Assembly: GCF_040537815.1 (NCBI RefSeq)
Contig: NZ_JBEWSZ010000008.1
Coordinates: 62,001-126,000, forward strand
From: Mesorhizobium shangrilense
Lineage (GTDB): Bacteria > Pseudomonadota > Alphaproteobacteria > Rhizobiales > Rhizobiaceae
Direction: 5' to 3'
Length of the DNA stretch: 64,000 nucleotides
In this document: piece by piece, positions 22,553-46,582 of the stretch
Layout of the letters: each line of letters opens with the position of its first letter
Numbering within the stretch: the stretch's first letter is position 1
Translations under genes and position numbers: made by a program
Notes under the pieces: generated by a model
Told to the model about the DNA's origin: nothing
The model's database searches: none
What the model saw: only the letters and a program-made list of their open reading frames with translations

Positions 22553-22576
22553 CAGTTGGAAAAGAGGATAGGCGAA

Positions 22577-23368
22577 ATGAAGAAACTCATCATAGCAGGC
22601 GCATTGAGCGTTCTCGCGATGTCGTCGGCATATGCGCAGGTCCCTGTCACGGACGCTGCAAATATCAAAATCAACCAGGAAATTCAGCGGCTATCCGCTC
22701 AGATCCAGCAGGATACGTCGGTCGTCAAGGACAACACGACAAAGACCCTGCAGGCCATTACCGGCGACCGAACCCAGGACGCCAGTCAGTTCGCATCGCT
22801 TGCGGCTGGCAACGGTTTCAGCATGGGACAGGCGCCTGGATTCGACAGCATCCTGTCGGGTAATTCGGCAGTTTTCGGGGGAATTGGTGGCCAATTCCAG
22901 AACGCTGCGGCGAAGCTCATTAATGGGCTCAATCTGGTGAAGATGGTTACCGATACGGTGAATGGCGGAAGCCTGTCAGGCGCCAATCAAGCCTATTCTC
23001 AGGGTATTAATGCCCTCACAACGATGACAGCCCTAACGGACGCGATGAACGCTGCGTCAAAGGATCGTCAGAATTCGTTCCAGCAGGCAACACAGCAGAT
23101 CGGCACGGCGAAAGATCTTAAGGGCGCGCTTGAGCAGAACACGCAAATGGTGCTGCAGGGCAACCAGACCGCCAACGAGGCAGTCGGATCGCTCAACAAC
23201 CAAGTCATGCTGCTCAATCAGCAGTACAAAGCAGGGTTGGCAACGTCGTCACAGAATATGAAGGTATTTGCTCCGCTTCCCGACAGTGTCATCCGCAGTG
23301 GCAGTCAACAGCCGCAAGGATCGTCGGTACGTGATCAATTGAAGGCCTTCGAGGATCAGAACCAGTGA
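22577..23368 (+). CDS. virB5: VirB5-like minor pilus protein
   Basis: ATG 22577 follows AGGATAGGCG. The 263-residue product has a signal peptide (MKKLIIAGALSVLAMSSAYA) and a helical, glutamine-rich mature part with coiled-coil character (INQEIQRLSAQIQQDTSVVK; QQATQQIGTAKDLKGALEQN). This is typical of VirB5/TrbJ proteins, which sit at the pilus tip and affect adhesion and host range. Order after virB4 supports it. Confidence 0.85.
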   Translation: MKKLIIAGALSVLAMSSAYAQVPVTDAANIKINQEIQRLSAQIQQDTSVVKDNTTKTLQAITGDRTQDASQFASLAAGNGFSMGQAPGFDSILSGNSAVFGGIGGQFQNAAAKLINGLNLVKMVTDTVNGGSLSGANQAYSQGINALTTMTALTDAMNAASKDRQNSFQQATQQIGTAKDLKGALEQNTQMVLQGNQTANEAVGSLNNQVMLLNQQYKAGLATSSQNMKVFAPLPDSVIRSGSQQPQGSSVRDQLKAFEDQNQ

Positions 23369-23580
23369 AGGTTGTGGGTTTTTTGATACTGGCCTGCGCG
23401 GCCATAACCGGTTGCGCGGGCAAATATGAGCAGTTGGCAAGGTGTTCGGCCGATGAAAACCCCGTGCCGAGTATGGCCTATGGCTCGGAAGCTAAAGGGA
23501 GCACTGAGCCTGGTGACGTGTTTTTGGCTGTGACAAATGAAGACGATTGCGGTCCCATGAGGCCGGTGAATCCATTCTAA
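23365..23580 (+). CDS. small lipoprotein, VirB7-like position
   Basis: A GTG start at 23365 overlaps the virB5 stop. The 71-residue product has a lipoprotein signal (VVGFLILACAAITGCAGKYE), lipobox ITGC, and two further cysteines in the mature part (RCSADE, DDCGPM). In VirB systems a small lipoprotein near virB5/virB6 is either VirB7, which stabilises VirB9, or an entry-exclusion lipoprotein. The sequence does not decide between them. Confidence 0.7.
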   Translation: MKVVGFLILACAAITGCAGKYEQLARCSADENPVPSMAYGSEAKGSTEPGDVFLAVTNEDDCGPMRPVNPF

Positions 23581-23589
23581 GGGGGACCG

Positions 23590-24675
23590 ATGGACGCGGT
23601 CAGCTATGCAGTCAATTTTTATGGCGACGCGCTAAGCTATTTCGACAAGATCAATGTTGCCTCCCTGGAGAGAGCCTGGGGATTGTTCGCCGAGAACGGC
23701 AATTTGATCTCTGCCATCTTGGCGCTCTTCTTGATCCTGTATTTTCTGTGGGGAGCGCTCGGGCTTTCCAGCGTGACCTTGCAGGACATGGCCATAACCG
23801 GATTCAAGGTTGCATTAGCATATGCGCTAATCATGTCGTGGGCGATATTTTACGACAACATCGCGCAGTTTGTCTTGGAAACTCCCCAGCAGTTGGGGTC
23901 AGCAATATCATCTGCGATGGGAGGAGACGTAGCTGGTGCGAATTTGGCGCAGCAAGTCGCCAGTATGTGTTTGAAGATCTACAATTTCACGATGAAGCTA
24001 TTTAACTCGTTCGAGTCTGGCATCATGCCGAATGTGACCGGCGCTGTTATTGTATTTATCGTGTTCTGTTTTGGTCTATTGCCAATGCTCCTGATCCTGA
24101 CGGGAGTGACGCTTTTCTCCAAGATGATTACGGCTATCATGTTGGCTGTCGGTCCTATTGCGATCCTTTGCTACTTTTTTCACATCACGAATTTCGTCTT
24201 TGGTGCCTGGGTGAGAGGAATTGCCTACGGCATGTTCATGCTCCTCTTCACTTACATCATGGCGGGCCTGGCTTTCGGCTTTCTTGCTGGAATGATGGAG
24301 ACGGTGAACGATAGCATGGCAACTAAGGAGAATGCACTTGCGATCGCGATCGCCATAGTTCTGTATCTTGCGATCATTTCCTATTTCATTCTGCAGGTGC
24401 CGGATTTCGCGAAGTCCTTTGCGTTTGGTGCGGCTATGAGCGGCGTTTCAGGCGGCGGGTATGTGCCGGAACTCTATCGTGGTGCTCAGAGCAGACTTTC
24501 CAAGGGTAACAGCAGAGGGGCACAAGCCGCAGGGGCAGCGCTTGCCATGGCCGGCGGGCCGAAGGGTGCCCTCTTGGCAACAATGGCTGCCGGGGGGGCT
24601 ATGGGCCGAGGCATGGGTGCTGGTGCGGGTGCGTTAGGGCGGATGTTGACAAACAGACGGCGCAACGGCGGCTAA
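23590..24675 (+). CDS. virB6: VirB6-like polytopic membrane protein
   Basis: This 361-residue protein has at least five membrane helices in the VirB6/TrbL pattern (LISAILALFLILYFLWGALG; ALAYALIMSWAIFY; VIVFIVFCFGLLPMLLILTG; FMLLFTYIMAGLAFGFLAG; IVLYLAIISYFILQVP). The tail is rich in glycine and alanine. VirB6 forms part of the inner-membrane channel. The gene follows the lipoprotein by 9 bases. After it the operon has a 117-base gap, the only real gap within virB. Confidence 0.92.
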   Translation: MDAVSYAVNFYGDALSYFDKINVASLERAWGLFAENGNLISAILALFLILYFLWGALGLSSVTLQDMAITGFKVALAYALIMSWAIFYDNIAQFVLETPQQLGSAISSAMGGDVAGANLAQQVASMCLKIYNFTMKLFNSFESGIMPNVTGAVIVFIVFCFGLLPMLLILTGVTLFSKMITAIMLAVGPIAILCYFFHITNFVFGAWVRGIAYGMFMLLFTYIMAGLAFGFLAGMMETVNDSMATKENALAIAIAIVLYLAIISYFILQVPDFAKSFAFGAAMSGVSGGGYVPELYRGAQSRLSKGNSRGAQAAGAALAMAGGPKGALLATMAAGGAMGRGMGAGAGALGRMLTNRRRNGG

Positions 24676-24792
24676 TTGGCGGTTGTTGCCGTAAGGAAAC
24701 CCATTTTCTTGCACTTGAGTGTAATTTATGGTGCATGTGATTGATTCACACGCCACAAAGTTTGTGTCGATTGGGACATATGAGGTTGGAAA

Positions 24793-25530
24793 GTGGCGTT
24801 CTTTAAGAAGCGGCAGAACGAGGTGCCAAGCGATCAGGCGCCAGGTCCGCAAGAGACTTATGATCAGCACCTTTCATGGGGCGAGAAGAACAAATCATTG
24901 AGGACGCTGATTGGCCTCATTTTGCTGTTCTTCGCCGTGGCTGGATGGGCAGTAGCGGGAATTTTGTCTTTCTCGGTTGCACAGCTATTTCCATTGGTGC
25001 GCACCGAGGTCGTGCCCCTCATCGTCGATAAGAACACCGGCTATATGGAAACCGTGACGACGCTCGAGAAGGACCGGACAAACGTCGCGGAAATGCAGGC
25101 TGTTAGAGCCGCCTTTGTTGGCAACTATGCCATCCGGCGCGAGACCTACGATCCACGTTATCTGTCAGACAATTTCGACATGATTGCTCTCTGGTCCGAG
25201 CCGGGCTCGAAGGCCTTTAAGGACTATGAGGAGTCGATGAATCCATCGAACCCACGGGGGCCGGTGAAGACTTTGGGATCAACCGGTGAAATTCGCCCGG
25301 AGATCCTTTCAGTCAATCCTCTCAACGCTAACACCATGAATGTGCGCTTCGAGACGAGAGAGCGCCAGCGTGGTGGCGAGGTGGTGAACAGGTGGTCTGC
25401 CACGGTTCGTTATAAGCAGATCAATTTGCAGGCAAGCAACAGGGTGCGGCTTTACAACCCGCTCGGTTTTGTCGTGACCGAGTATGTAAAGGTGCCTGAA
25501 AACATGCCGTCCGGGTTGGTGGGTCAATGA
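24793..25530 (+). CDS. virB8: VirB8-like inner-membrane protein
   Basis: The GTG start at 24793 follows AGGTTGGAAA. The 245-residue product has a short cytoplasmic N-terminus, one membrane helix at about 38-62 (LIGLILLFFAVAGWAVAGIL), and the periplasmic VirB8 domain (YAIRRETYDPRYLSDNFDMI, then PLGFVVTEY). VirB8 nucleates the T4SS core. The 117-base gap before it may hold an internal promoter, but I see no clear −35/−10 pair. The stop overlaps virB9 by four bases. Confidence 0.93.
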   Translation: MAFFKKRQNEVPSDQAPGPQETYDQHLSWGEKNKSLRTLIGLILLFFAVAGWAVAGILSFSVAQLFPLVRTEVVPLIVDKNTGYMETVTTLEKDRTNVAEMQAVRAAFVGNYAIRRETYDPRYLSDNFDMIALWSEPGSKAFKDYEESMNPSNPRGPVKTLGSTGEIRPEILSVNPLNANTMNVRFETRERQRGGEVVNRWSATVRYKQINLQASNRVRLYNPLGFVVTEYVKVPENMPSGLVGQ

Positions 25531-26372
25531 AGAGAACGACGACTATCCTCTTGAGCCTGCTTTTGACCATATCAATGGCTCATGCGGAACTGGTTGCTCG
25601 GCCTGGCCGGCTCGATCCGCGTGTGCGGACGTTGCCCTATTCGTCAGAGCAGGTGTTTTTGGTCACAGGAACCTACGGGATGGTGACGACCATCCTGTTC
25701 GGTGCTGATGAGGAAATCACCCAGGTCGTCGCCGGCGACACCGTGTCATGGCAGATACTAACATCAGCAGACCGGCGGTCGCTGACGTTGAAGCCGATGG
25801 AAAAAGATGCGCCGACGAATTTGTCGGTGGTTACATCAAAGCGGACCTACTCTTTTGATCTTCGCGTTAACGACACCCGCTCGATGCTCAATCAGACTTA
25901 CAAGCTACGCTTCACGTATCCCGAGGACGCAGGACTGAGGGGCACGGCGGAGATGTGGAAGCAGGCACAGGACGCCCAAAAAAACCCTAATATCAAGAAC
26001 ATCCGCCGGGATAAGGTCAACTACGACTACGGTTTCAAAGGCAGCGATTCAGCCAAGCCTTTGTGGGTGTTCGACGATGGGCTGAAAACCTTCATGAAGT
26101 TCACTGGTGACGTTCCAGCGATTTTTATCGTTGACCGAAAGCGACGCGAAAGCCTCATAAACTACCGGAGGGAAGAGGACTATATCGTCATCGATACAGT
26201 TTCGCGGCAATGGACGCTACGCTACGGCACGGAGGAAGAAACGTGCCTTTTCAATTTGCGGACCGCACCGGCCGATGCGCCAGCGCCGATCGAAGGCGTG
26301 GTGGGTCCTAAGAGGATTGGCAAGGGCGGATCGCGCAGCGGCCCTCTCCAACCGCAAACTCGATCAAGGTAG
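25527..26372 (+). CDS. virB9: VirB9-like core-complex protein
   Basis: The 281-residue product has a signal peptide (TTILLSLLLTISMAHAE). The N-terminal VirB9 domain has RVRTLPYSSEQVFLVTGTYG and the C-terminal domain has KPLWVFDDGLKTFMKFTGD, a conserved VirB9/CagX block that interacts with VirB7. With VirB7 and VirB10 it forms the ring spanning to the outer membrane. Order and overlap with virB8 match a standard operon. Confidence 0.93.
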   Translation: MKRTTTILLSLLLTISMAHAELVARPGRLDPRVRTLPYSSEQVFLVTGTYGMVTTILFGADEEITQVVAGDTVSWQILTSADRRSLTLKPMEKDAPTNLSVVTSKRTYSFDLRVNDTRSMLNQTYKLRFTYPEDAGLRGTAEMWKQAQDAQKNPNIKNIRRDKVNYDYGFKGSDSAKPLWVFDDGLKTFMKFTGDVPAIFIVDRKRRESLINYRREEDYIVIDTVSRQWTLRYGTEEETCLFNLRTAPADAPAPIEGVVGPKRIGKGGSRSGPLQPQTRSR

Positions 26373-26380
26373 GGGGCAAG

Positions 26381-27751
26381 ATGTCCGATTCTCACTATCA
26401 TTCGATCGAAGGCGATACAGCGATCGGCGGTCCAGTCAGAAAAGTGGGCATTGGCATCATGCGCCCAGTCGCGGTTGCGGCCGCGATCGCGGGCGTAGGT
26501 GTCGTGCTTTATTTCCTTTTGTCCGGTCGCCAGGAAGCGCCGATCGTCGATACAACGCCGCGAGAGGAGTTTCAGCCGATCCAGGCCCCGAGGAATGACG
26601 GGTTTACGACACCAGCGCCTCCACCGTTGCCGACCGTGCAGGTTCCAGAGGCCCCACCTCCGCCGCCGCCGCCTCCACCGGCCGCCGTGGTTCCGGCAGC
26701 TATGCCGGTAGCGACGCCGGAAGACGTCGATTGCTCCAACGGCAAGAATCCTGAACATCCGAAATGCGTCGAACTTGCTCGGCAAGCGAAGTTGCTCGAG
26801 CGTGTGCGTTCGTCGTCCATGGTTTTCGATCAGTCGAATCAAACCAACGGAGCAGCTCAGCCGACAGCAAACGGGCAGGGTGGCTTTGGCGGTGGCGAGC
26901 CGTCTGCTGCTGAAGGACAAGCTGCAGGCGGTGGCGGTGGCGCTGTCGACAATGATCGCGCGTTCCTGAAGGCCATGGGCGGGCAGGGTGTTGAAGTCTC
27001 GACGGCGACGGAAAATCTCCGCACCGATGCGTGGATCCCGCAAGGAACGACGATTCGTGGCACGCTTGAGACGGCCATCAATTCGGACCTAGCCGGCATG
27101 GTGAAGGGCATCGTGCGTGAGGACGTCTATTCGTTCGATGGTCGTCGCATTCTAATCCCGGCAGGCTCGTCACTGATCGGCGACTACAAGTCTGGCGTTG
27201 AACGCGGGCAGGAGCGGGTTTTCATCGTGTGGACCCGTATGATCCGTGGCGACGGCGTGTCTGTGCAGTTGGGCTCGTATGGTACTGATCGGCTCGGCCG
27301 CTCGGGCATGACGGGCAAAGTGGACAAAAAATATTGGGAACGCTTCGGCCCGCCAGCATTGATGACGATGATCGGCGGCGCGGCACAATACGTTGCCTCA
27401 CTTGGCCAGCAGGAAACGCAGTACATTACGATCGTCAACTCGGACGGTTCAGTCACGCGCACCCCGCAGGATAACGGCGACAGTTCCCAAACCCGGGCGC
27501 GAAAAATCGCGGCTGAAACCATCGCGTCAGGGATTCAGCAGATGGCCTCTCAAGCGTTCGAAGACACCCGTAGCATCCGTCCGACGATCCATATTGCCCA
27601 GGGATCTGATATCACTGTTTTCGTCACCCGTGATTTGGACTTTGCGGACCTTTATCCCGACCCGGTGCGGGAAGAGTACGAGCGGCTTCTGCACAAGAGG
27701 GAACAGCGGGACAGTGCTACCCGCGTGCCAGACGAGCCCGTCTACAAATGA
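26381..27751 (+). CDS. virB10: VirB10-like energy-transducing protein
   Basis: The 456-residue product has a cytoplasmic N-terminus, one membrane helix at about 32-50 (VAVAAAIAGVGVVLYFLLSG) and a proline-rich stretch (APPPPPPPPPAAVVPA) crossing the periplasm. The TrbI/VirB10 domain follows (AWIPQGTTIRGTLETAINSD; IPAGSSLIGDYKSGVERGQE; FVTRDLDFADLYP). It senses ATP use by VirB11/VirD4 and gates the outer-membrane channel. It overlaps virB11 by four bases. Confidence 0.95.
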   Translation: MSDSHYHSIEGDTAIGGPVRKVGIGIMRPVAVAAAIAGVGVVLYFLLSGRQEAPIVDTTPREEFQPIQAPRNDGFTTPAPPPLPTVQVPEAPPPPPPPPPAAVVPAAMPVATPEDVDCSNGKNPEHPKCVELARQAKLLERVRSSSMVFDQSNQTNGAAQPTANGQGGFGGGEPSAAEGQAAGGGGGAVDNDRAFLKAMGGQGVEVSTATENLRTDAWIPQGTTIRGTLETAINSDLAGMVKGIVREDVYSFDGRRILIPAGSSLIGDYKSGVERGQERVFIVWTRMIRGDGVSVQLGSYGTDRLGRSGMTGKVDKKYWERFGPPALMTMIGGAAQYVASLGQQETQYITIVNSDGSVTRTPQDNGDSSQTRARKIAAETIASGIQQMASQAFEDTRSIRPTIHIAQGSDITVFVTRDLDFADLYPDPVREEYERLLHKREQRDSATRVPDEPVYK

Positions 27752-28797
27752 ATGCGCGTCCGTCCATTTCGGCTGAGCAGCACTTTCTCTCGGAAGCGCT
27801 AGAGCCAATTAAGACTTTTCTCGACGATCCGAGCATCGTCGAGATTTCGTGCCAGCGAAGCAACGAAGTGTGGCTCGAGCGTATTGGCACGCTGGCAATG
27901 GAAAAGGTGATTGTCGAAGGGGTCGAGCAAGAGGCGATACGCCATATGGCGTCTCGTGCCGCATCCTTCACCAAGCAGAACATCAACGCTGAAAAACCCT
28001 TGCTGTCGGCCACACTCGTCAATGGCGAGCGCGTCCAGTTTGTCTTGAACCCGACATCGGCAACCGGCCATGCCTTGTCGATCAGAAAGCAGTTTATCCG
28101 GCGCTTCGACCTTGACGATTATGAGAAAGCCGGCGCCTTCCGATTCACCAAGGTGACGGGTGACGACTATATCGACGATGTCGATGTCGAATTATCGAAC
28201 GTGTTGCGGGCGGGAAAGGCAAGGGCCTTTCTTGAAATGGCGGCGAAGAACCATCGCAGTATGCTGATCTCCGGGGGAACGTCGACTGGCAAGACGACAT
28301 TCCTCAACACGATGCTGACGGCTATTCCGAACAATGAACGCTTCGTATTGATGCAAGACACGCCCGAGCTCGAGCCGCGTCAAGAGAATGTCGTCTCTCT
28401 GCTCGTTTCGAAAGGGGGGCAGGGCGAAGCGCGTGTGACGATGACGGATCTGCTGGCCACCGCGCTGCGTTTGCGGCCGGATCGGATTTTTATGGGCGAG
28501 TTGCGTGGCGAAGAGGCATTCGACTTCCTGAATGCGATCAATACCGGCCATCCAGGGTCAATGTCGACCATTCACGCCAATTCGCCGCATCATGCTTTTA
28601 ATCGGTTGTCGACACTCGTTTTGAACAGCAATGTTCGCATGGAGCGCGACGATATCATTCGTTACATCCGGTCGATCATTCCGATCGTGGTGCAGTTGAA
28701 GAAGAGCGATGCTGCCGGCGGCCGCGGCGTCAGCGAAATTTATTTCGCCGATGAGGTAGATGAAGATGGCAAGCGTGTACACGGACGAGGAGATTGA
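27748..28797 (+). CDS. virB11: VirB11-like traffic ATPase
   Basis: The length of 349 residues is normal for VirB11. Walker A (GGTSTGKTTF) is near residue 175, the Asp box RFVLMQDTPEL near 200, Walker B/His box MGELRGEEAFDFLNAINTGH near 250, and STIHANSP near 273. The hexameric ATPase sits at the inner face of the membrane and switches the T4SS between pilus assembly and DNA transfer. Its 3' end overlaps virD4 by 38 bases. Confidence 0.95.
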   Translation: MNARPSISAEQHFLSEALEPIKTFLDDPSIVEISCQRSNEVWLERIGTLAMEKVIVEGVEQEAIRHMASRAASFTKQNINAEKPLLSATLVNGERVQFVLNPTSATGHALSIRKQFIRRFDLDDYEKAGAFRFTKVTGDDYIDDVDVELSNVLRAGKARAFLEMAAKNHRSMLISGGTSTGKTTFLNTMLTAIPNNERFVLMQDTPELEPRQENVVSLLVSKGGQGEARVTMTDLLATALRLRPDRIFMGELRGEEAFDFLNAINTGHPGSMSTIHANSPHHAFNRLSTLVLNSNVRMERDDIIRYIRSIIPIVVQLKKSDAAGGRGVSEIYFADEVDEDGKRVHGRGD

Positions 28798-31663
28798 CCG
28801 CCCGAAGTGGACTGGTCTCCAGAAAGTATCGTTTTTCACCTTCCCGGTGGCGCTTGTCGCTGCGATCTTGCTGTGGCTTGCTTTTTTCACGCTCATCTAT
28901 GACCTCTATGTGACGTCGTTCGGCTCGACCTCCTTCTTCGACTATATCTCCAAGGCCCCATTTCCGGATGGTGTTCGATACACCTGGTCGATCATCGGCA
29001 TCCGCAACACCTTTGGCTTGTCGGTTCTCGCCGTCGTGCTGGCGGCGCCTTTCCTCTTCGCCTGGTTTTGTCTCTGGATGATGAAAGGAGGACGAGCGCT
29101 TTCGCGCAAGATTCTTTATCTCTTGCATGTGCGATCGATGTTCAGCCTGATCGCGAATACGGCCCTTGTCTTCGCGGCCGCCTATGTCGGTGTGATCGCC
29201 TATGGCATCGGTTTTTTTCTGGTCGCGACGAAGTTCGGCCATAATGCCGCAGCGGCCGAATATTTTGGCAATCATCTCGCGGCCATGTACCAGGCGCCCT
29301 TTGGCGCGATTGATGCGGCCGGCGCCTATCAGCGGCCATCGCGTCAAACGGTATTGGCTGCACTGGCGGGGCTTGCGGCGGCCGGCGCTCTGGTAGGCTT
29401 TCCAATCGGAGCGGCGGTGCAAAAGCGTCAGCGTATGGTCATGGGCAAGGCCCGTCTCGCGACGTTGAAGGATGCGGCGGATTTCCGGCTGCGCGACAAG
29501 CACGGGATCGTGCTTGGGCTGAAGCAGGGGCTGTTGTTGCGCAATGACGGCGATCAGCATGTCATGGTCATCGGCTCGCCAGGGCAGGGTAAGTCGCGCA
29601 GTTTCGTGATCCCGACGATGATGAGCTTTCAGGGCTCCCAGTTCGTTCTCGATATGAGCGGCGAGCTGTTTGAGGAAACCTCCGGCTACATGAAAGACAA
29701 GGGGTACGATGTCTATTTGCTGGCGCCGGGTTCCAAGCTCACTGACGGCTACAATCCTCTCGATCTGATCAGCAAGGACCCAAATCAGCGGATCACCGAC
29801 CTCCAGAAGCTGACGCAAATGCTGCTTCCGGAGCGTCTTCGCTCCGATTCATCGGATTTTTGGGAGGAAAGCGCCCGTATCCTGATGACAGCCATGTTGG
29901 GTTTCGTCCTCGAATGCCCGGATACGCGAAAATCATTGAGCGAGCTCTATCGCATCCTCAACTCGATGTCGGACGAGCGCAAGGCGATCGTGCAGCTGCT
30001 TGAGAACTATGAAAGTGTTCTCTCCGATCAGACCCGTATGCAGCTGACCAAATTTTCCGGACGGCATGAAAAGCTCGGGGAGGGCATCGCGGCCGAGATC
30101 GTCGCGAAGCTCAACTTCCTGCAGAACCCTCTCGTCGAGGCCTTGACCTCCATAACGACGATCCCGGTCGACACCATCCGGAAGCGTAAGATGGTGATCT
30201 ACATCCAGGCGGACTGGAACGCGATCCAGATCTACGAGCGGCTGATCTCGATCTTCCTCCAGCAGATGGCGGACAAGCTGGTGCAGATGGGCAAGTTGCG
30301 GGATGGCGAGCACGAAATCCTCATGATGCTCGACGAGTTCGGCAATGGCGGCCGCATCGATACGGTTTTGACCCTGGCGCCATTGATCCGCAAGAACGGC
30401 GTGCGCTTCGTCTTCATTCTTCAGGACGGCGCGCAGCTCGAGCGGTTGTACCAGAAATCTGGCCAAAAGATCCTCATGGGGGCTTCAACCATCAAACTCT
30501 TTATGAACTTCCAGAACCAGGAGGACGCAACTGCGGTCTCCATAGCGGCCGGCAAGACGACGGGATGGATTGATCAGTCGTCATACACGCATCGTCATGG
30601 TCGTCGTGATCGCTCGGTTTCTAAGGTGCCGGTGGCCGTTGATCTTCTCCCGGTCAACACGCTGATGATGATGAAGCCCGAAGAAGCCATCCTGCAGGTG
30701 ACCGGAATGCCGCTGATGCGGATTATGAAGCTGGATTCGGGCGGCGAACGCATGTTCTCGAAGGTTCGCAAGTTCAAGCCTCTGCCTAAGCCACGCATGG
30801 AGCCGGTAGAATGGACCGTTGCGGATACCGTCAAATTCAACGGCTCCCGACCTTCCGCGAAGGATGCGACAGGCGAAGTGAAAGACCGGCGCGTCAAGGC
30901 AGCGATGGAGGTCGATTTTGCGTCCGTTGAGCGGCCACAGAACGCTCATGAGGTTCGTTTCTCGGTTAAGGATGGTATCCGCCAGGTGTATATCTCGTCC
31001 CTCGATGAGCTGCGTCATCGGCTTGATCTCGATGAGAAGCGTTCAGTCGGAGTGACTGAAGATGATCTGCGGAAAGAGCGGCAGAAGGAACAGCCGCCTC
31101 AAAAGATTGCAAACGTCAACACGGTATCCCTCAGCCATAACGACAAGCGCCCTAAAACCGACGATGAATCGGAATCCGATACAAAAGCAAGCCGGAAAAG
31201 ACGCCCAATTAGTGAGATGAATTCCGGTGACCGCGGCTCGCTGAATAAAGCCACCACACAGCGCGCAAACCAGGAAATTGGTGAGAAGGACGGAGCCGAC
31301 GAAGACGACCTGGAGATCGACCTTGAGAAGCTCGATCGTAACAAATATGCCAGCATCCTTACAAAGCGGGATCCTGTTCGGGAGCGGCATTTGGCGCGCG
31401 AGGATGCGCCAGATATGCAGGTCATTCGTTCGCCGGTGCTTCGGCGGCAGGAAGTCCGCGACGCGTTTGATTCCGACGTTACCGCCTTTAATCAGGTGAT
31501 TTTTGACAGCGTGAATGCGGCCAGCGAAGTCGACGCTACGGACTTGAACGCTGACGTTGATCTGATGGTGCAAAAGCTATCGGAAAGAATGTCCGACAAA
31601 ACCTCACGCAGCTATCTCGAGGAATATGCGGAGATGGCGCGTGATCCATTGGCAGAAAAATAG
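28760..31663 (+). CDS. virD4: VirD4-like coupling protein with long C-terminal extension
   Basis: The 967-residue protein has four or more N-terminal membrane helices and then the coupling-protein ATPase. Walker A (GSPGQGKSRSF) lies near residue 271, Walker B (HEILMMLDEFG) near 520 and VFILQDGAQLERLY near 553. About 300 residues after the ATPase (from about 655) are charged, low-complexity and end in an acidic helix. Classical VirD4/TraG proteins are 600-700 residues, so this extension is unusual and may bind substrate. ATG 28760 lies inside virB11; ATG 28766 is equally possible. This is the last gene of the block. Confidence 0.95.
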   Translation: MKMASVYTDEEIDRPKWTGLQKVSFFTFPVALVAAILLWLAFFTLIYDLYVTSFGSTSFFDYISKAPFPDGVRYTWSIIGIRNTFGLSVLAVVLAAPFLFAWFCLWMMKGGRALSRKILYLLHVRSMFSLIANTALVFAAAYVGVIAYGIGFFLVATKFGHNAAAAEYFGNHLAAMYQAPFGAIDAAGAYQRPSRQTVLAALAGLAAAGALVGFPIGAAVQKRQRMVMGKARLATLKDAADFRLRDKHGIVLGLKQGLLLRNDGDQHVMVIGSPGQGKSRSFVIPTMMSFQGSQFVLDMSGELFEETSGYMKDKGYDVYLLAPGSKLTDGYNPLDLISKDPNQRITDLQKLTQMLLPERLRSDSSDFWEESARILMTAMLGFVLECPDTRKSLSELYRILNSMSDERKAIVQLLENYESVLSDQTRMQLTKFSGRHEKLGEGIAAEIVAKLNFLQNPLVEALTSITTIPVDTIRKRKMVIYIQADWNAIQIYERLISIFLQQMADKLVQMGKLRDGEHEILMMLDEFGNGGRIDTVLTLAPLIRKNGVRFVFILQDGAQLERLYQKSGQKILMGASTIKLFMNFQNQEDATAVSIAAGKTTGWIDQSSYTHRHGRRDRSVSKVPVAVDLLPVNTLMMMKPEEAILQVTGMPLMRIMKLDSGGERMFSKVRKFKPLPKPRMEPVEWTVADTVKFNGSRPSAKDATGEVKDRRVKAAMEVDFASVERPQNAHEVRFSVKDGIRQVYISSLDELRHRLDLDEKRSVGVTEDDLRKERQKEQPPQKIANVNTVSLSHNDKRPKTDDESESDTKASRKRRPISEMNSGDRGSLNKATTQRANQEIGEKDGADEDDLEIDLEKLDRNKYASILTKRDPVRERHLAREDAPDMQVIRSPVLRRQEVRDAFDSDVTAFNQVIFDSVNAASEVDATDLNADVDLMVQKLSERMSDKTSRSYLEEYAEMARDPLAEK

Positions 31664-37288: not shown

Positions 37289-39292
37289 TCACCGGCTCCG
37301 GTCGCGATCCTTTTCCTGCGGCGGGCGCAACTTAATGGTTTTCGCGACTTCACGATCGCGCTGCTGCTCTTCTTGCCGATCGCGGCCGCGTTCCTCGCGG
37401 TCGTTCTCGCGAACATCGTGGCTGGCGTTGGCGCTGGCGATGCGCGCTGCGTCGATTGTTCGATTGTTCGAGGTTTTGTTCAGGGTCCCCTGCTCCGCGA
37501 CGTGGTCGCGGCCGGCGGCGGACTTTGTCTCGAGCGACGTGGACTTCCGATTGTCCTGGCCGCGATCCTTCTCCTTCGCCGCACGCGCATCCAGCTGCAG
37601 GCCGACAACTTTGCCAATCACCTTGGTGGCCTGCTCAAAGATAATCCGATCGGCAGGGTTCGCGATTTTTGCGGCAACGCTGACTGCCGTTTGCGCCAAA
37701 GCCTCCTTGGCGGTCTTTGCCTGTCCGGTGCTGATGGGTGTGGATCTCAACATGTGGTCGTGACCTTTCTCTTGTGTAGGGTCCCTGCCCTCGCGAATTG
37801 CAGCTTCTAGCCGATTATACTCCCGTCGAAGTCCTACGGACAGGTCTTGGCTCAGCTCACGTGCTGTACTTGGCGCTGTTTTGTCTTTTGCCAGCCCCTC
37901 GAGCATATCAATAACACGGTTGATAGATCTTTTAGTCTGGTCGAATTTTTCTCTCGCAATCTCCAGCTTCGGAGCTGTCGGCTTATCTCGGACCTTTGAC
38001 ATCACCTTGTCGATGACATTGGTCGGCGCAGTAGCTCCCATGCGCCGGAACATTTCCCATTCCCATCTTTTGACGGGAGGAGGACCTGCCCTCTCGACGC
38101 GCTTTTGCCTGTCGATCGCAATTCCGCGATCGCGCGCCTTATCTGCAAAACGGAGCCGCCATTCGGTAAAGTCACGAATGTTTGGGTTGATCATCTTCCC
38201 GCCAGCATGGCGCAATGAGACAATGACATGGAGGTGCGGGTGCTTTTCCATGTCATGTCGGTTATGAACGGCATAGGCGTATCGGTGCCCTGCGAATTGC
38301 TCTTTCAAGAAGTCTCGGCCGGCCAGGACGAATTGATCGCGATCGACATTGGCGGGGCCTGATAGCAACAGGTGCATGAAATCACGAGGTTGGCGCGTTT
38401 GCATCAGAGCGGCGATGGTCTTGCCCTCGGTCGTGATTTCCTTGTGATCCGTGGTCGTGATTTCGCGACGATCGTCGGATCGCTCATAGACCCCGCTTTT
38501 TCCCCCGCGCTGCTTGATATGGGATTTTGTCGACAGGGTGACATCAGCGCCGTCGCGCTGCATGGCGTGCAGGGTTGCCGTCAGTCCTTTGGGGCCTGAT
38601 GCAAAGTCGACGGGATAGCGGGAAATCGGCTTGATACCCTCCTTGCGCAAGGCACTGTCTAGACGAGCATCGATGGCCCGAATGTCATCGAGCTCGGCCG
38701 GGATCCGATTGTCGCTGCTCCGGTCGGCTCGGCTTTTCTTTTCATGAGCGATGACAAGCGCCAGGTGGAGCCGGGTCTGTCCGTTGACGCCAGCGCTCAC
38801 ACTGAATGCGTATGTTCGATCGGTGTCGCCGGCGTGACGGAACCCCTCCCCTGCCAATGAGTCCAGGGCTCGAGCGACACTTCCGCGATCCGTTTTTTCA
38901 AGCTCGTAGCTGAAGCGGACGATATCCTTGCTGCCTTTTCGGTTTCCGAATTCTCGCTCCCACTCCCTGACAGCTCGGTTCAGATCCGAAACTTCACGGC
39001 CGTCCTGGTCGTGTGCCCGTTCTTCTTTGCTTTGATAGGCAAGAACGTTCCGGGCCGATCCGGATCCAGCACCGTAGGACAGAACCTTGACGACGACGGC
39101 ATTGTTGCCAGTTGCTCGGCTGAGGGCGGTAGCGGCGCCGCTGTGCACGTTCGGTGCCGTGGGAGAGCGGCGCGCTCCGCCCCCTCCCCCGCCACCGCGG
39201 CGGCGGAGCTCGTCGTCTATCAGATCGAAATATGTCGGTAGTCGTCGCTCTTCCGGCCTAGGCCCCGAGCGACCCTTGGATAGGTCGTTCAT
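37289..39292 (-). CDS. MOBP-type relaxase (VirD2/MobZ-like)
   Basis: The 667-residue protein nicks oriT and pilots the strand into the recipient. After a proline/glycine-rich N-terminus, motif I (SARNVLAYQSKEE) gives candidate Tyr 86. The three-histidine motif (HNRHDMEKHPHLHVIVSL, His 343-355) chelates the metal, as in MOBP relaxases. About 200 extra residues separate the two motifs, more than in VirD2. The C-terminal third is helical and highly charged and ends AKTIKLRPPQEKDRDRSR. This arginine-rich tail is a typical T4SS export signal and nearly repeats the tail of the Fic protein at 45122. The start overlaps the accessory gene upstream by 35 bases. Confidence 0.85.
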   Translation of the reverse strand: MNDLSKGRSGPRPEERRLPTYFDLIDDELRRRGGGGGGGARRSPTAPNVHSGAATALSRATGNNAVVVKVLSYGAGSGSARNVLAYQSKEERAHDQDGREVSDLNRAVREWEREFGNRKGSKDIVRFSYELEKTDRGSVARALDSLAGEGFRHAGDTDRTYAFSVSAGVNGQTRLHLALVIAHEKKSRADRSSDNRIPAELDDIRAIDARLDSALRKEGIKPISRYPVDFASGPKGLTATLHAMQRDGADVTLSTKSHIKQRGGKSGVYERSDDRREITTTDHKEITTEGKTIAALMQTRQPRDFMHLLLSGPANVDRDQFVLAGRDFLKEQFAGHRYAYAVHNRHDMEKHPHLHVIVSLRHAGGKMINPNIRDFTEWRLRFADKARDRGIAIDRQKRVERAGPPPVKRWEWEMFRRMGATAPTNVIDKVMSKVRDKPTAPKLEIAREKFDQTKRSINRVIDMLEGLAKDKTAPSTARELSQDLSVGLRREYNRLEAAIREGRDPTQEKGHDHMLRSTPISTGQAKTAKEALAQTAVSVAAKIANPADRIIFEQATKVIGKVVGLQLDARAAKEKDRGQDNRKSTSLETKSAAGRDHVAEQGTLNKTSNNRTIDAARIASANASHDVRENDREERGRDRQEEQQRDREVAKTIKLRPPQEKDRDRSR

Positions 39293-39653
39293 CGTGCTGT
39301 CGAATTAGTTCCTCGATATAAGTCGATGGTCTCACAAAAGCGGCGTCGCGAATAGAGTCGATTGTGTTTATGACTTCATTAAGTTTCGCCATTATGGCTT
39401 TCGCCGCTTCATCCCGCCTATCTTCATTATCGGCTAGAAACTCTTCATTGTGGAAGGCCATCTCACGCAGGAACTGATGCATATTCGCCAATTGCTTGTC
39501 ATGTTCTTCAAGCATGGCTGGCGTATTCATGATCTCTCTGATCACGGTCAGCTTTGCGACCATGTTGACGGACAAATTCAGTCGGCTCGCCAATGCGTCG
39601 ACATTTGCCAACACATGCCCAGGCAGCCGAAACATAACGGCTGGTTCCCGCAT
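39258..39653 (-). CDS. relaxosome accessory protein (VirD1/MobC-like position)
   Basis: The start at 39653 (MREPAVMFRLPGHVLANVDA) is chosen over 39686. The 131-residue protein has a short N-terminal DNA-binding-like element (MFRLPGHVLANVDALASRLN) and a long helical, coiled-coil-like body. Its end overlaps the relaxase start, the usual place for VirD1/MobC proteins that open oriT DNA for the relaxase. Sequence similarity to VirD1 is not obvious, so the call rests mainly on position and size. Confidence 0.6.
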   Translation of the reverse strand: MREPAVMFRLPGHVLANVDALASRLNLSVNMVAKLTVIREIMNTPAMLEEHDKQLANMHQFLREMAFHNEEFLADNEDRRDEAAKAIMAKLNEVINTIDSIRDAAFVRPSTYIEELIRQHDERPIQGSLGA

Positions 39654-39657
39654 GAAG

Positions 39658-40107
39658 TCAGAACCCCCTCTCCGACAAGGCTTCATTGATCAGACGGTGG
39701 AGTGCTTTGTTGGGATCCTGCCCAACATCGACAGCGTATTTGAAAACGCGGAGCATCATCTCATCGTCAAAGAATAATGAAACACGGCGTGTCCCGGCTT
39801 TGGGCTTGGGCTCAGGCGACTGCGTCTTTCGAGGCGGCGGCGTGCTTGCGGCTTTTGGCTTTGGCGTCGTTGTCGATGACCCAACCGGCGAACCAATAGC
39901 CTGATCGGTGGGCTCAGCCTCGGACCGGGAGGATGTTCCGGCAGGCACCGGCGTAGTGCGCCTCGCTTTTTCGATCGTAACATCGGTCGGCATAAAAGCG
40001 ACAGCTGCGTCGTCGTCGGCAACGGGTTCTGCCGCCTGAAACCTCGATGAAGCCATGCTGACGATGTTGCCTGCAACGGGTTCGCGTTCCTTGGGTGCTT
40101 TGGACAT
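39658..40107 (-). CDS. VirC2-like ribbon-helix-helix protein
   Basis: The 149-residue protein has a disordered Pro/Thr/Ser-rich N-terminal two-thirds. A compact C-terminal domain (RRVSLFFDDEMMLRVFKYAV, then GQDPNKALHRLINEALS) has the length and pattern of a ribbon-helix-helix fold. VirC2 of Agrobacterium has this architecture, follows virC1 and binds DNA near the T-DNA border. Here the start overlaps the virC1-like stop in ATGA. A role at the oriT or at the repeat field at 41 kb is a reasonable inference. Confidence 0.7.
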   Translation of the reverse strand: MSKAPKEREPVAGNIVSMASSRFQAAEPVADDDAAVAFMPTDVTIEKARRTTPVPAGTSSRSEAEPTDQAIGSPVGSSTTTPKPKAASTPPPRKTQSPEPKPKAGTRRVSLFFDDEMMLRVFKYAVDVGQDPNKALHRLINEALSERGF

Positions 40108-40874
40108 CAGGCGTTACTCGCTTTCTTCTGGCCCGGTTGCTCGGACGCAAGAAGGTTGATGAATTCGTTGTTGACCATTTTGATCGAGTCGATTGAGTCC
40201 AGAACGCTTTCCGAGGCGCGGATACGTGCCGAAGGCGTGAGTTTAGGATTGTTCCGGATAGTCTCCAGCTTGGTGTAGAGCGAACCGTATCCGGCCACGA
40301 CGTCGCTATAATGGTTGCTCTTCTTGATCATTGAATTGACGATCGGAATCTTGCCGTAGTTTAGGATTTTGATCACCTCCCCTAACGAGCGGTTCGATTT
40401 TAGGGCGATCATGTCGACGTTGTTCCACATTGCCGCATACGGAATTCGGCGGCCGCCTCGTTTCTTCGATATCTCCTCAAGGATATTTGCCACATTGATT
40501 GCCTGGGTGGCCGAGGTGGGCTCCAGAATGATCGGAATGATGACGGCGTCGCATTCTTCATAGACGTCGACGGCGCGGCCGTGCACGTAGCCTCCAACGT
40601 CAAACACGCGAATGTCGACGGTCGGGGCCGATTTCAATTTCCCATGGAAGTCATCCTCGGACGAAATCTGCAGATGTGAGATCCGTCCATCATCAGGAAG
40701 CATATTTCGCTTTTTTGACACTTCGTACCAACGGGTCGCCGTTTGCTGGTCGTCGCAATCAACCAGTTGAGTGCGGTGTCCCTGCTGGGCAAATTCAGCG
40801 GCCAGGTTGACGCACAACGTTGTCTTGCCTGCCCCACCCTTGAAAGTCGATATTGCCAGTGAAAGAGGTCGCAT
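40107..40874 (-). CDS. VirC1-like ParA-family ATPase
   Basis: This 255-residue protein has a deviant Walker A (STFKGGAGKTTLCVNLAAEF), a Walker A' region LVDCDDQQTATRWYE, and the switch IRVFDVGGYV. Expected ParA elements are present, but DVGG replaces the usual DxPP. VirC1 assembles relaxosomes and binds overdrive DNA; ParA proteins move replicons. Placement with a VirC2-like gene, a MobC-like gene and a relaxase favours VirC1. It is the first gene of the leftward operon, whose promoter must lie just right of 40874, next to the repeat field. Confidence 0.85.
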   Translation of the reverse strand: MRPLSLAISTFKGGAGKTTLCVNLAAEFAQQGHRTQLVDCDDQQTATRWYEVSKKRNMLPDDGRISHLQISSEDDFHGKLKSAPTVDIRVFDVGGYVHGRAVDVYEECDAVIIPIILEPTSATQAINVANILEEISKKRGGRRIPYAAMWNNVDMIALKSNRSLGEVIKILNYGKIPIVNSMIKKSNHYSDVVAGYGSLYTKLETIRNNPKLTPSARIRASESVLDSIDSIKMVNNEFINLLASEQPGQKKASNA

Positions 40875-40961
40875 CGCTGATCCTTGTGTTCACACGCCAT
40901 GGTTCGATCACGCTCATGGAAAATGAGCCTGTCTTCAACCCTACCCCTCAACGATTAACAA

Positions 40962-41390
40962 AGTGGCAGTCGCGGCGACTGCCAGACGTCGCGTGGTAGC
41001 GACTGCCATTGTGGCAGAATGGCAGTCGTAGAGACGTAGCGTCGTCCATAATGCACATGTGCCAGTTGTCCAATCGCAGCGTTGTAGCGTTGTGGCGACT
41101 GCCATTCTGCCAGTTATCGCGACGTAGCGTTGTCCATTATGCCATTATGTCAGAGTGGCGTTATGGCAGTGTGACAAGATGGCAGAATGGCAGTCGTGGA
41201 GACGTAGCGTCGCCCATAATGCACGTGCGCCAGTTGTGCAATCGCGGCGTTGTAACGTTGTAGCGTTGTCGCGACTGCCACTCTGCCACTCTGCCACTCT
41301 GCCACTCTGCCACTCCGCCAATATGGCAGAATGGCAGAGTGGCACTCGAAGCGACGTAGCGACGTGCATTATGGACGACGCTAGGTCTCC
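40962..41390. repeat. dense direct and inverted repeat field between virC1 and oriT
   Basis: Two direct copies of about 100 bases (41011-41112 and 41180-41289) share TGGCAGAATGGCAGTCGT…, then AGCGTCGTCCATAATGCAC (one mismatch in copy two), then CCAGTTGT and GCGACTGCCA. An inverted copy of the 19-base core lies at 41364-41382. At 41275-41314 the 8-mer CTGCCACT occurs five times in tandem and pairs with TGGCAGAGTGGCA at 41334-41346. A dyad TGGCAGTCGC…GCGACTGCCA lies near 40963-40983. No credible coding frame explains this. The position suggests a binding array for VirC1/VirC2 or a centromere-like site. Confidence 0.85.
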
Positions 41391-45121: not shown

Positions 45122-46108
45122 TCAGCGGGAGCGGTCGCGGTCAGACAATTTCGGAGGCGCGAGCTTGACCGTTTTGGCAGGTATTTTGTCCTGAGCGCGC
45201 TGCGATTTGTCATCGCTTCGATCTTTCTCGTCGCCACGATCTGACTTGCTTCTGGCAGTGATGGCGTGCTCGATGGAGACGTTGACGCGATCATTGGATT
45301 GCGGCGTCTTGGCGAAGTTTTTCACGTCGAAGGCGTGGACGCCGCGAGCATTGGCGACAAGTGCGGTGTTGTAGCTGACGGTTAGGACCTGCCCCTTGAG
45401 TTCGTCACCCTGTTTGGGGAACTGGATCTCGGGCTTGCCCATCATCCTAAGCGCCTGCGCGGTCATGCTGGTGATGCGTCCGAGTTCGGGGTGGTTGCGC
45501 TCTTTGTTGATCTGGTGAGCCTGCAGAACGCGTTTCGCAAAGTCCTTGCCATCGCCAACGGTGGCCTTGGCCAGGAAATCACGCGTTTCGCTCGCAGCCG
45601 GCCACATTGTTTCGCGGTCGAGTTCGAAACCGCGCTCCTTGGCGAACTGGTGCATGAATACGCCGATTGTGCGGGTATTGCCTTCTCGAAAGGGGTGAGC
45701 CTGCCAGACGTTGCTGATCAGCTTGGTAAACTGAGCCGCGGATTGAGCCTTGTTGTTGTCGTCCCAGCGTAACCTGCCGAGATCCTTTGTGTCGCGATCG
45801 AGCAGCTGCTTCATGTCCTTGTGATCACCATAGACGACCGAATGGCCGCCGAGGACCGCTTCTGGCTTTGACATGTTGTAGATGCGCTGTTGCCCGGCCC
45901 AGGGATAGACATCGGCGAAGATTCGGCGATGAACTTCCATAAGGTGTTCGGTATCGAAATTGCCCTTCACCGGGTTCTTCGCTAGATCGCGGAGAGCTTT
46001 CTTCGTGGTGACCTGCTCACGCAGATCAAGCGTATCCTGATCGCGCGCACCGAATTTGTTGATCAGTACCGATGTGCCGGGATAGCAATAGGGGTCTTGA
46101 TCAGACAT
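45122..46108 (-). CDS. Fic-domain protein with relaxase-like C-terminal export tail
   Basis: The 328-residue protein (ATG 46108, MSDQDPYCYPGTSVLINKFG) has a Fic domain with motif HPFREGNTRT at about residues 138-147. Most Fic enzymes transfer AMP from ATP to target proteins; the motif His, Phe, Glu, Gly-Asn and final Arg are kept. An OB-like segment follows (LKGQVLTVSYNTALVANARG). The layout Fic-OB resembles Bartonella Bep/VbhT proteins, but no BID domain is present. Instead a charged linker ends AKTVKLAPPKLSDRDRSR, 13 of 18 residues identical to the relaxase tail. This suggests export by the same T4SS. No neighbour shows the [S/T]xxxE[G/N] antitoxin motif. Confidence 0.88.
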   Translation of the reverse strand: MSDQDPYCYPGTSVLINKFGARDQDTLDLREQVTTKKALRDLAKNPVKGNFDTEHLMEVHRRIFADVYPWAGQQRIYNMSKPEAVLGGHSVVYGDHKDMKQLLDRDTKDLGRLRWDDNNKAQSAAQFTKLISNVWQAHPFREGNTRTIGVFMHQFAKERGFELDRETMWPAASETRDFLAKATVGDGKDFAKRVLQAHQINKERNHPELGRITSMTAQALRMMGKPEIQFPKQGDELKGQVLTVSYNTALVANARGVHAFDVKNFAKTPQSNDRVNVSIEHAITARSKSDRGDEKDRSDDKSQRAQDKIPAKTVKLAPPKLSDRDRSR

Positions 46109-46208
46109 GGTCACCGAATAACCAAACTAGAACAATCAGATGCGATTTGAATCGCCTCGCGTCCCCCGGTCAACAGCCGGGGATCTGCTCGAAATTCTGG
46201 TCGGGAAA

Positions 46209-46232
46209 AGAAAAACGGCCGATCAGGCCGCT
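46209..46232 (-). terminator. terminator overlapping the stop of the 46223-46582 gene
   Basis: Leftward: CGGCC TGAT CGGCCG followed by TTTTTCTTTT. The stop codon at 46223-46225 lies in the loop. It separates the upstream gene from fic, so fic probably has its own promoter in the 100 bases at 46109-46208. Confidence 0.8.
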
Positions 46233-46582
46233 TTTGATCGTTTGTAAGCGAGGTAGCGATCGCCGACGGTGAAGGCCTCGTCCATGGTCAGGACGCCGTG
46301 CTCCTCGAGCGCGGAGAGGAATTCCTCGAACGGACCGAGTTCGTTGCCAGAGCCGCGCATGATGGCGAGGCTGCCGTGATCGTCGTCATCGAGCATAGCC
46401 TGACGATGACGCGAAAACACGTCGAGGTCGCCGGTCTGGAAGAAGGCATTGATCACCATGTCGGCTTGTTCGCGCGTGGTGATGATGTCGGGAACATTGT
46501 CGAGCATGGCACCTCTCTTTCGGCGTTCAATATAGACATTTCTGCCATGAATTTCAACGTTTTGCAGCCTGTTGACGGACAT
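46223..46582 (-). CDS. hypothetical protein upstream of fic
   Basis: ATG 46582 follows AAAGGAGTG. The 119-residue acidic protein (MSVNRLQNVEIHGRNVYIER, then ITTREQADMVINAFFQTGDL and ALEEHGVLTMDEAFTVGDRY) has no membrane part. Its position just upstream of fic raised the question of an antitoxin, but it lacks [S/T]xxxE[G/N] and a terminator separates the genes. Unrecognised family. Confidence 0.6.
   Translation of the reverse strand: MSVNRLQNVEIHGRNVYIERRKRGAMLDNVPDIITTREQADMVINAFFQTGDLDVFSRHRQAMLDDDDHGSLAIMRGSGNELGPFEEFLSALEEHGVLTMDEAFTVGDRYLAYKRSKAA

What the first reader, a model, noticed from the sequence alone, without database searches (positions are those of the whole stretch)
45122..46108. 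Fic protein ends with the same arginine-rich tail as the relaxase
The Fic protein ends AKTVKLAPPKLSDRDRSR; the relaxase (stop at 37289) ends AKTIKLRPPQEKDRDRSR: 13 of 18 residues agree at the extreme C-terminus, with no other similarity. Codons differ even in the shared DRDRSR (the serine is TCC in one, AGC in the other), so this is not a recent DNA copy but protein-level retention. C-terminal arginine-rich tails are known export signals of VirB/VirD4 systems. The simplest reading is a Fic effector or toxin sent through the plasmid's own T4SS, alone or with the relaxase, using a relaxase-type tail in place of the BID domain of Bartonella Bep/VbhT proteins.
Basis: partly seen in the sequence, partly recalled or inferred. 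Interest (0 to 1): 0.9.

Follow-up and report, generated by a model that had tools for sequence, protein, structure and literature searches.

The report
Fic toxin copying the relaxase's tail
A Fic-family toxin carried on a soil bacterium's conjugative plasmid ends in the same short tail as the plasmid's own DNA-pilot protein, and related plasmids show the same pairing with differently worded tails, which suggests the toxin is addressed for injection into the recipient cell along with the plasmid.

Summary
The Fic protein (45122-46108, minus) and the MOBP-type relaxase (37289-39292, minus) share 13 of their last 18 residues and no other significant similarity; at 8 of those 13 residues the codons differ. 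In the 8.35-Mb genome only these two genes end DRDRSR-stop. The pairing recurs, with different wording, in four plasmid classes of Hyphomicrobiales: ranked against all ORFs of its locus, Fic is the best match to the local relaxase tail in 31 of 32 pairs of these classes, but in 0 of 9 pairs outside them. Across 14 pairs identical residues use identical codons no more often than codon usage predicts (63 of 157; 61.3 expected), so the likeness is kept at protein level. Inside the window's class the tails partly co-vary (permutation fraction 0.004, not phylogeny-corrected; one sub-lineage departs in its last six residues); the other three classes show no such signal. The Fic is modelled as FIC-OB, as in Bartonella Beps, but with a disordered tail and no BID domain. 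Best reading: a Fic toxin exported by the plasmid's own T4SS through a relaxase-type address tail. Export is untested. New variant of a known kind (VbhT).

The parts
45122..46108 (-). Fic protein, 328 aa from ATG (330 aa from GTG at 46114)
45671..45697 (-). FIC motif HPFREGNTR (residues 138-146); GNT instead of GNG, and the second arginine (R2) position is Gly
45254..45418 (-). beta domain after FIC (residues about 231-285), confidently modelled; called OB by analogy with Beps
45125..45178 (-). codons of the relaxase-like tail AKTVKLAPPKLSDRDRSR, modelled as disordered
46223..46582 (-). upstream partner ORF (from ATG) with AIMRGSGNE motif, candidate antitoxin of unknown family; a terminator-like hairpin plus T-run lies between it and Fic (seen in the sequence; the scan tool listed the palindrome on the other strand only)
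37289..39292 (-). MobA/VirD2-like (MOBP-type) relaxase, 667 aa
37292..37345 (-). codons of the relaxase tail AKTIKLRPPQEKDRDRSR
40107..40874 (-). VirC1/ParA-like ATPase, head of the relaxase operon
39258..40107 (-). two small ORFs (39258-39686, 39658-40107) between VirC1 and relaxase, no Pfam hit; accessory relaxosome genes by position (inferred)
28760..31663 (+). VirD4-type coupling protein, 967 aa, proposed reader of both tails
18877..28797 (+). VirB-type T4SS genes VirB4 to VirB11, named by order and by the like gene order of annotated plasmids

Best explanation
The Fic protein is a toxin or effector of the conjugative plasmid that is exported through the plasmid's own VirB/VirD4 channel. 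Its catalytic FIC domain is followed by an OB-like domain and a flexible linker that ends in an 18-25 residue imitation of the local relaxase's C-terminus; the plasmid's coupling protein would read that tail as it reads the relaxase, so Fic enters the recipient with or beside the relaxase-DNA complex and modifies a target there until plasmid-made antitoxin is produced. Shown: tail identity, recurrence in four plasmid classes, protein-level conservation, partial co-variation in one class, predicted FIC-OB fold without BID. Inferred: recognition by the coupling protein, export, action in the recipient, and which target is modified.
For: In four plasmid classes Fic is the top C-terminal match to its own relaxase among all ORFs of at least 60 aa in 30 of 31 loci and in one more (NT-25). 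Class-mean scores own versus foreign: W 52.8, V 47.8, M 26.3, T 35.9 against 3.8-21.7. Tails share the class's net charge, positive or not. Identical tail residues use identical codons 63 of 157 times, 61.3 expected, in 14 pairs. Within class W own pairs beat shuffled pairs, fraction 0.004; e.g. VLTPP with VLTPP (L012), KVRPP with KVAPP (L013). In W the linker before the tail is 34% identical, the tail 54%; in V 54% and 60%. In six stretches of about 42 kb with the same relaxase and no annotated Fic, no convincing ORF carries the tail (best 40, an out-of-frame ORF over an HU gene; next 29). Of 19 other Fic frames listed besides the V-class L118, 18, including the two other Fic proteins of the own genome, end 21-65 residues after the FIC motif (one broken; L111 ends Arg-rich); only L120 is long. 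Coupling proteins are 56-71% identical within W and 21-28% between W, V and M (T not compared). Precedent: VbhT is secreted by a conjugative T4SS through a relaxase-derived BID domain (PMC5675462; abstract, passages and section 10 read).
Against: No translocation was tested. All nine scored pairs outside the four classes fail to rank first: L008 74 of 266, L009 33 of 340, G383 67 of 182, G017 5 of 151, G193 2 of 334, G241 25 of 200, Sphingopyxis 28 of 420, Cupriavidus 10 of 342, Rhodococcus 2 of 392. L008, L009 and G383 were set apart after I had seen their tails; G383 and G193 have TraA-type relaxases like M and T. One in-class locus, L017, ranks 2 of 158. Sub-lineage A. leguminum/Ensifer/S. 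meliloti: Fic ends KYRSR, relaxase KDRDRSR. V, M and T show no significant fine-scale co-variation. G198 and G202 keep the V-class Fic tail with no PF03432 relaxase found (other relaxase families not searched there), though coupling-protein genes remain. Several of the loci are close relatives, so they are not independent.
Confidence: 0.74

Rival explanations
1. The tail docks Fic on the coupling protein or relaxosome in the donor without export: Fic works there as a brake or regulator of conjugation, for instance by competing with the relaxase or by modifying a transfer protein.
For: The same tail identity would be needed for docking; Fic-bearing plasmids are a small minority of plasmids with this relaxase (1 record with the Fic at 60% identity or more, 47 records with the relaxase over at least 80% of its length).
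Against: The known relative with a relaxase-derived C-terminus, VbhT, is exported (PMC5675462). FIC-OB architecture is that of exported Beps.
Confidence: 0.13
2. Both proteins carry the tail for another shared partner (a chaperone, single-stranded DNA, a plasmid-encoded adaptor) and the tail says nothing about secretion.
For: The tail is modelled as disordered and is charged and short-motif-like.
Against: Most T4S substrates carry their signal at the C-terminus (PMC6509941, passages), and the wording follows the transfer-system class.
Confidence: 0.08
3. Chance or composition: arginine/aspartate-rich C-termini are common in these GC-rich genomes and look alike.
For: One out-of-frame 60-aa ORF reached a score of 40 among 2895 ORFs in six loci, near the lowest class-W pair (43); nine pairs outside the four classes rank between 2 and 74.
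Against: Rank 1 in 31 of 32 in-class pairs; unique DRDRSR-stop in the own genome; class-specific wording.
Confidence: 0.02
4. Recent duplication or gene conversion of the relaxase 3' end onto fic, without function.
For: VbhT shows that relaxase ends can be fused to a Fic gene (PMC5675462).
Against: Identical residues have no excess of identical codons, 63 of 157 versus 61.3 expected; in W and V the tail is better conserved than the linker.
Confidence: 0.03

Closest known systems
VbhT of Bartonella schoenbuchensis plasmid pVbh (VbhTA toxin-antitoxin module)
   Same: Plasmid-borne Fic toxin near the dtr genes, C-terminus matching the local relaxase TraA, conjugative VirB-type T4SS (PMC5675462); its FIC domain is the best PDB sequence match of the window Fic (residues 3-167).
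   Different: VbhT carries a BID domain virtually identical to that of TraA (PMC5675462; about 100 aa, PMC6509941). Here there is no BID, only an 18-25 residue tail; the FIC motif lacks R2 and the partner gene is not recognised as VbhA.
Bep effectors (BepA, Bep1) of Bartonella
   Same: FIC followed by OB; BepA and Bep1 chains are the five top Foldseek matches over 295-311 columns.
   Different: No BID domain; on a conjugative plasmid with a relaxase. Foldseek rmsd is 10.7-11.4, so the domain arrangement is not fixed.
FicT of Methylobacterium extorquens DM4 p1METDI (BID-like extension, proposed substrate in PMC5675462)
   Same: Matched by the window Fic (H6) and by homology of what I call class M, whose members show the same tail pairing with TraA; p1METDI itself was not fetched.
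   Different: Class M Fic is about 434 aa as annotated in L002 and L004, with a BID-like extension according to the paper; relaxase is MobA_MobL/TraA with a BID match below the cut-off.
VirE2/VirE3/VirF/VirD5 and VirD2 of Agrobacterium (C-terminal VirB/VirD4 signals)
   Same: Short positively charged C-terminal signals shared by relaxase and effectors of one T4SS (recalled; general review statement in PMC6509941 passages).
   Different: Recalled as charge patterns without the residue-by-residue identity to the relaxase seen here.

Membership tests
VbhT-type exported Fic toxin | FIC domain homologous to VbhT | tested here: met
   Best PDB matches 3zcb/3shg VbhT, E=8e-22; fold match 3shg TMt 0.80
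VbhT-type exported Fic toxin | C-terminal BID domain | tested here: not met
   No PF17841 in window Fic (E<=0.001) or in the W and V representatives L013 and L003 (E<=0.1); residues 288-328 disordered
VbhT-type exported Fic toxin | NCBIfam VbhT equivalog score (cut-off 800) | tested here: not met
   94.3 bits
VbhT-type exported Fic toxin | VbhA-type antitoxin with (S/T)xxxE(G/N) directly upstream | tested here: not met
   Window partner ORF lacks the motif and any Pfam/NCBIfam hit; class V has VbhA (PF18495 E=8.6e-18 in L003), with the motif altered
VbhT-type exported Fic toxin | C-terminus shared with the plasmid's relaxase | tested here: met
VbhT-type exported Fic toxin | Secreted through the plasmid's T4SS | not testable with these tools
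   needs a translocation assay
Canonical AMPylating FIC enzyme | Motif HxFx(D/E)GNGRxxR | tested here: not met
   HPFREGNTRTIG: GNT, and Gly at R2; motif definition recalled
Bep effector (FIC-OB-BID) | FIC followed by OB | tested here: met
   predicted fold only
Bep effector (FIC-OB-BID) | BID domain | tested here: not met
VirB/VirD4 substrate with short positive C-terminal signal | Net positive C-terminal tail | tested here: met
   Class W Fic mean +4.1, relaxase +4.4 in the last 25; not so in classes V and M
VirB/VirD4 substrate with short positive C-terminal signal | Recognition by the cognate coupling protein | not testable with these tools
   coupling protein present in the window at 28760-31663

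The most novel reading that the evidence does not exclude
Conjugative T4SSs of Hyphomicrobiales read a class-specific C-terminal address word, not mere positive charge, and one toxin family (Fic) has come to carry each class's word repeatedly and keeps it in step with the relaxase. Relaxase-tail matching would then be a way to predict proteins co-injected with plasmids.
Probability: 0.45. Interest if true: 0.87.

Novelty: new variant of a known kind. Interest (0 to 1): 0.76.

Why it matters
Harms et al. (PMC5675462) wrote that most T4SS signals are very short and notoriously difficult to predict, and anticipated that more toxins secreted alongside conjugation would be found. Here the plasmid supplies its own key: the relaxase tail. 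The residue-level match across four transfer classes turns 'which plasmid proteins are co-injected, and what part of the tail is read by VirD4' into a directly testable question, and offers a natural set of paired signals for mapping coupling-protein specificity.

Tried and rejected
Recent DNA copy or gene conversion: rejected by codon comparison. Chance or composition: rejected by the rank test and own-genome pattern. Other cargo with the same tail: no convincing ORF in the loci scanned (the best stray scores were 29 and 40, the latter out of frame over an annotated HU gene). A universal rule for plasmid Fic proteins: rejected. Of 41 Fic/relaxase pairs ranked, Fic was first in 31: 31 of 32 in the four classes, 0 of 9 outside (two MobF plasmids L008 and L009, G383, G017, G193, G241, Sphingopyxis, Cupriavidus, Rhodococcus; Sphingopyxis was also tried against its LPD7 protein, 11 of 420). 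The first three of these nine had been labelled class X only after their tails were seen. Fine-scale co-variation in classes V, M, T: not significant. Order- and genus-wide searches for more class-W pairs gave little: own genome plus one other in 397 searched (a 38% relative) and own genome plus one other in 146 searched.

Rows dropped before counts: L005 (no relaxase seen), L014, L020, L025, L027 (no whole relaxase found on the contig), L129/G189 and L131/G195 (relaxase cut at a contig end or the Fic tail out of family), L126/G198 and L132/G202 (no relaxase found), L236 (no PF03432). E. adhaerens pC fits class V by eye but was not scored. Three pairs on different contigs of one genome (L010/L171, G096, G031) and two protein-only pairs are in the 39-pair matrix but not in the rank test; one of these (P0003/P0124) was later placed about 9 kb apart on one contig, the other (P0007/P0130) rests on equal contig length.

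Full report
WHAT IS THERE. The window is a stretch of contig C8 of an 8.35-Mb genome with a VirB-type T4SS and a VirD4-type coupling protein at 18877-31663 on the plus strand, a relaxase operon at 37289-40874 on the minus strand headed by a VirC1/ParA-like gene, and, about 6 kb further, a Fic gene at 45122-46108, also minus. The two C-termini are AKTVKLAPPKLSDRDRSR (Fic) and AKTIKLRPPQEKDRDRSR (relaxase): 13 of 18 identical, in the only significant similarity between the proteins. The DNA is 31 of 54 identical, and 8 of 13 identical residues use different codons. In the whole own genome only these two genes end DRDRSR-stop.

ARCHITECTURE. AlphaFold2 with 16 aligned sequences gives a mostly confident FIC plus OB-like fold for residues 1-285 and disorder for 288-328 (mean pLDDT 80.9). 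The best fold matches are BepA and Bep1 of Bartonella over 295-311 columns (rmsd about 11, so domain orientation is not fixed), then VbhT. No BID domain is found in the window Fic or in the class W and V representatives L013 and L003. So the build is that of Bep effectors with the BID domain replaced by a short tail. The FIC motif is HPFREGNTRTIG: GNT instead of GNG and no second arginine, whereas VbhT reads HPFREGNGRTLR in the alignment.

RECURRENCE. The tails of the classes are unlike. Examples, Fic then relaxase: W TRTVKVAPPKSKNHDRGR, VRTIKVRPPQSKDRDRGR (Phyllobacterium, L013); W ARIVLTPPKSDDRGRDR, SRVVLTPPKDRDRGDRSR (Mesorhizobium denitrificans, L012); V ELKAIEAQQLADRQRNRDQDDRER, RLEELEREQVEQRERNRDDRDR (Rhizobium rhizoryzae, L003); T LDRAQAQERSRAQLRSLDRHGPTR, YERAVSQTRAQSQVRDQGVTR (Pelagibacterium, L021). 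Mean C-anchored scores within class are 52.8, 47.8, 26.3 and 35.9; between the four classes 3.8 to 21.7.

RANK TEST. For 31 loci of the four classes with Fic and relaxase on the same contig or plasmid, all ORFs of at least 60 aa in the stretches held were ranked by C-terminal similarity to the relaxase. Fic was first in 30 of 31 (106 to 598 ORFs per locus) and second in one (L017, class M). The three X pairs (two MobF plasmids L008 and L009, and G383 with a TraA-type relaxase) gave ranks 74 of 266, 33 of 340 and 67 of 182. Seven further pairs gave 5 of 151, 2 of 334, 25 of 200 (G017, G193, G241), and 1 of 368 (NT-25, class V), 28 of 420 (Sphingopyxis), 10 of 342 (Cupriavidus), 2 of 392 (Rhodococcus MobF). 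In all, 31 of 41: 31 of 32 in the four classes and 0 of 9 outside them. The X pairs were set apart after I had seen their tails, and G383 and G193 carry TraA-type relaxases, so the phenomenon is tied to particular plasmid lineages and is not a rule for a relaxase type. Many V and M loci are close relatives; the independent unit is nearer to the four classes. M and T are related and have BID-type regions (PF17841 E=2e-8 in the L021 Fic, 5.6e-21 in its TraA, 1e-4 and below the cut-off in the L002 TraA, none in the L002 Fic), which Harms et al. already proposed for the M. extorquens member. The new cases are W and V, in whose representatives no BID is found.

PROTEIN-LEVEL CONSERVATION. In 14 pairs, 157 aligned residues are identical; 63 have identical codons against 61.3 expected from the two genes' own codon usage. 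There is no DNA-level memory of a copy event, so the likeness is either old and selected or convergent. In class W the body is 66% identical between members, the 30-residue linker 34%, the last 18 residues 54%; in V 76%, 54% and 60% for the last 24.

CO-VARIATION. In class W own pairs score 61.8 on average, shuffled pairs 52.8 (sd 2.8, 0.375% of shuffles as high); V 48.0 versus 46.8 (14%), M 28.0 versus 26.7 (23%), T 34.9 versus 35.9 (99%). These shuffles are not corrected for phylogeny. The Agrobacterium/Ensifer/Sinorhizobium sub-lineage is a counter-example in the last six residues. Relaxases of the window's family listed without regard to Fic (120 tails) nearly all, judged by eye, keep K(S/T)(I/V)KLRPP...DRDRSR or a close form, and W-type Fic at 60% identity or more is in 1 plasmid record against 47 records with the relaxase over at least 80% of its length. 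The tail is therefore primarily the relaxase's, and Fic is the follower (inference). In six stretches of about 42 kb around such relaxases without an annotated Fic, no convincing ORF carries the tail.

ADDRESS, NOT JUST CHARGE. Net charge of the last 25 residues: W Fic +4.1, relaxase +4.4; T +2.6, +3.0; V -1.1, -2.4; M -1.1, -1.9. Coupling proteins are 56-71% identical among three W-type plasmids and 21-28% identical between the W, V and M (TraG) proteins compared; T was not compared. The tail wording thus follows the transfer class and not a general positive-charge rule (inference).

OTHER FIC PROTEINS. Of 19 Fic frames listed for loci besides the V-class L118, 18 end 21-65 residues after the FIC motif, including the two other Fic proteins of the own genome (L108 is broken; L111 ends Arg-rich); L120 (G017) is long.

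CONTRARY DATA. No export assay exists. Two V-class genomes, G198 and G202, hold the Fic with its usual tail and no PF03432 relaxase (MobA_MobL was not searched there), with coupling-protein genes on the same contigs (in G198 one is a 253-aa frame about 5 kb from Fic).

MECHANISM AND FUNCTION. Most likely Fic is delivered to recipients with plasmid transfer. What it modifies is unknown: FicT toxins AMPylate gyrase and topoisomerase IV (PMC5675462, passages), but the missing R2 here makes the chemistry uncertain. An ORF just upstream (46223-46582 in the window) with AIMRGSGN(E/D) is seen in 5 of 7 class-W loci looked at (not L012, L122) and 2 of 3 class-M loci (not L022) and is a candidate antitoxin; in the window a terminator-like hairpin separates it from Fic, so the two may be separate transcription units.

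LITERATURE. Seen: PMC5675462 (abstract, passages, section 10), PMC6509941 (passages), PMC13274422 (one passage; whole-word search found no Fic, VbhA or VbhT), PMC8627217 (term search only; no Fic). Searches listed no paper that, from its title and abstract start, reports short relaxase-type tails on Fic proteins; the library lacks most subscription papers and holds no bioRxiv preprints. Harms et al. expected further toxin substrates with short signals.

VERDICT. Observation confirmed; interpretation supported by comparison, not by experiment; new variant of the VbhT kind. On rechecking, I lowered the probability of the general address-word reading from 0.50 to 0.45, because three non-matching pairs had been set apart only after their tails were seen.

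Noticed in passing
L003, L007, L008, L124-L128, L130, L132-L134 (Fic and the ORF upstream): In 12 of these 12 loci the Fic reads GNGRxxE (second arginine replaced by Glu) and the VbhA-like ORF upstream reads (A/M)NxRQG where the canonical motif is (S/T)xxxEG (Glu to Gln; canonical form recalled). Xanthomonas L009 with Arg keeps SQRLEG; L131 has Gln at R2 and no such ORF was listed. It looks like a coupled toxin-antitoxin charge swap (Pfam VbhA checked for L003 only).
   Followed up: partly
window 46223-46582 (-): Partner ORF upstream of Fic with AIMRGSGN(E/D), shared with several class W and M loci, no Pfam or NCBIfam family: possible new kind of Fic antitoxin.
   Followed up: partly
window 45671-45697 (-): Class W, M and T Fic motifs looked at read GNT and lack R2, so the transferred group may not be the usual AMP.
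   Followed up: no
window 40959-41380: Dense 8-nt-phased repeats (CTGCCACT/TGGCAGA types, both orientations) upstream of the VirC1/ParA gene: candidate overdrive, centromere or oriT-side array.
   Followed up: no
L227 12138-13829, L228 12439-14121, L232 12449-14131: In plasmids of the same relaxase family without an annotated Fic nearby, a conserved two-gene unit (about 95-97 aa plus about 460 aa) sits beside the coupling protein; it is not among the four best C-terminal matches to the relaxase.
   Followed up: partly
L176 1471-1722 (G015 contig C2): An orphan 83-codon frame encodes about the last 70 residues of a class-W relaxase, tail included, apparently a remnant.
   Followed up: no
L238 19863-20831 and 23109-27386: Rhodococcus MobF plasmid: Fic end ...TRDTGYEL and relaxase end ...DRGTDNGPEL rank 2 of 392 with a low score of 18; possibly a further, weaker case.
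   Followed up: no
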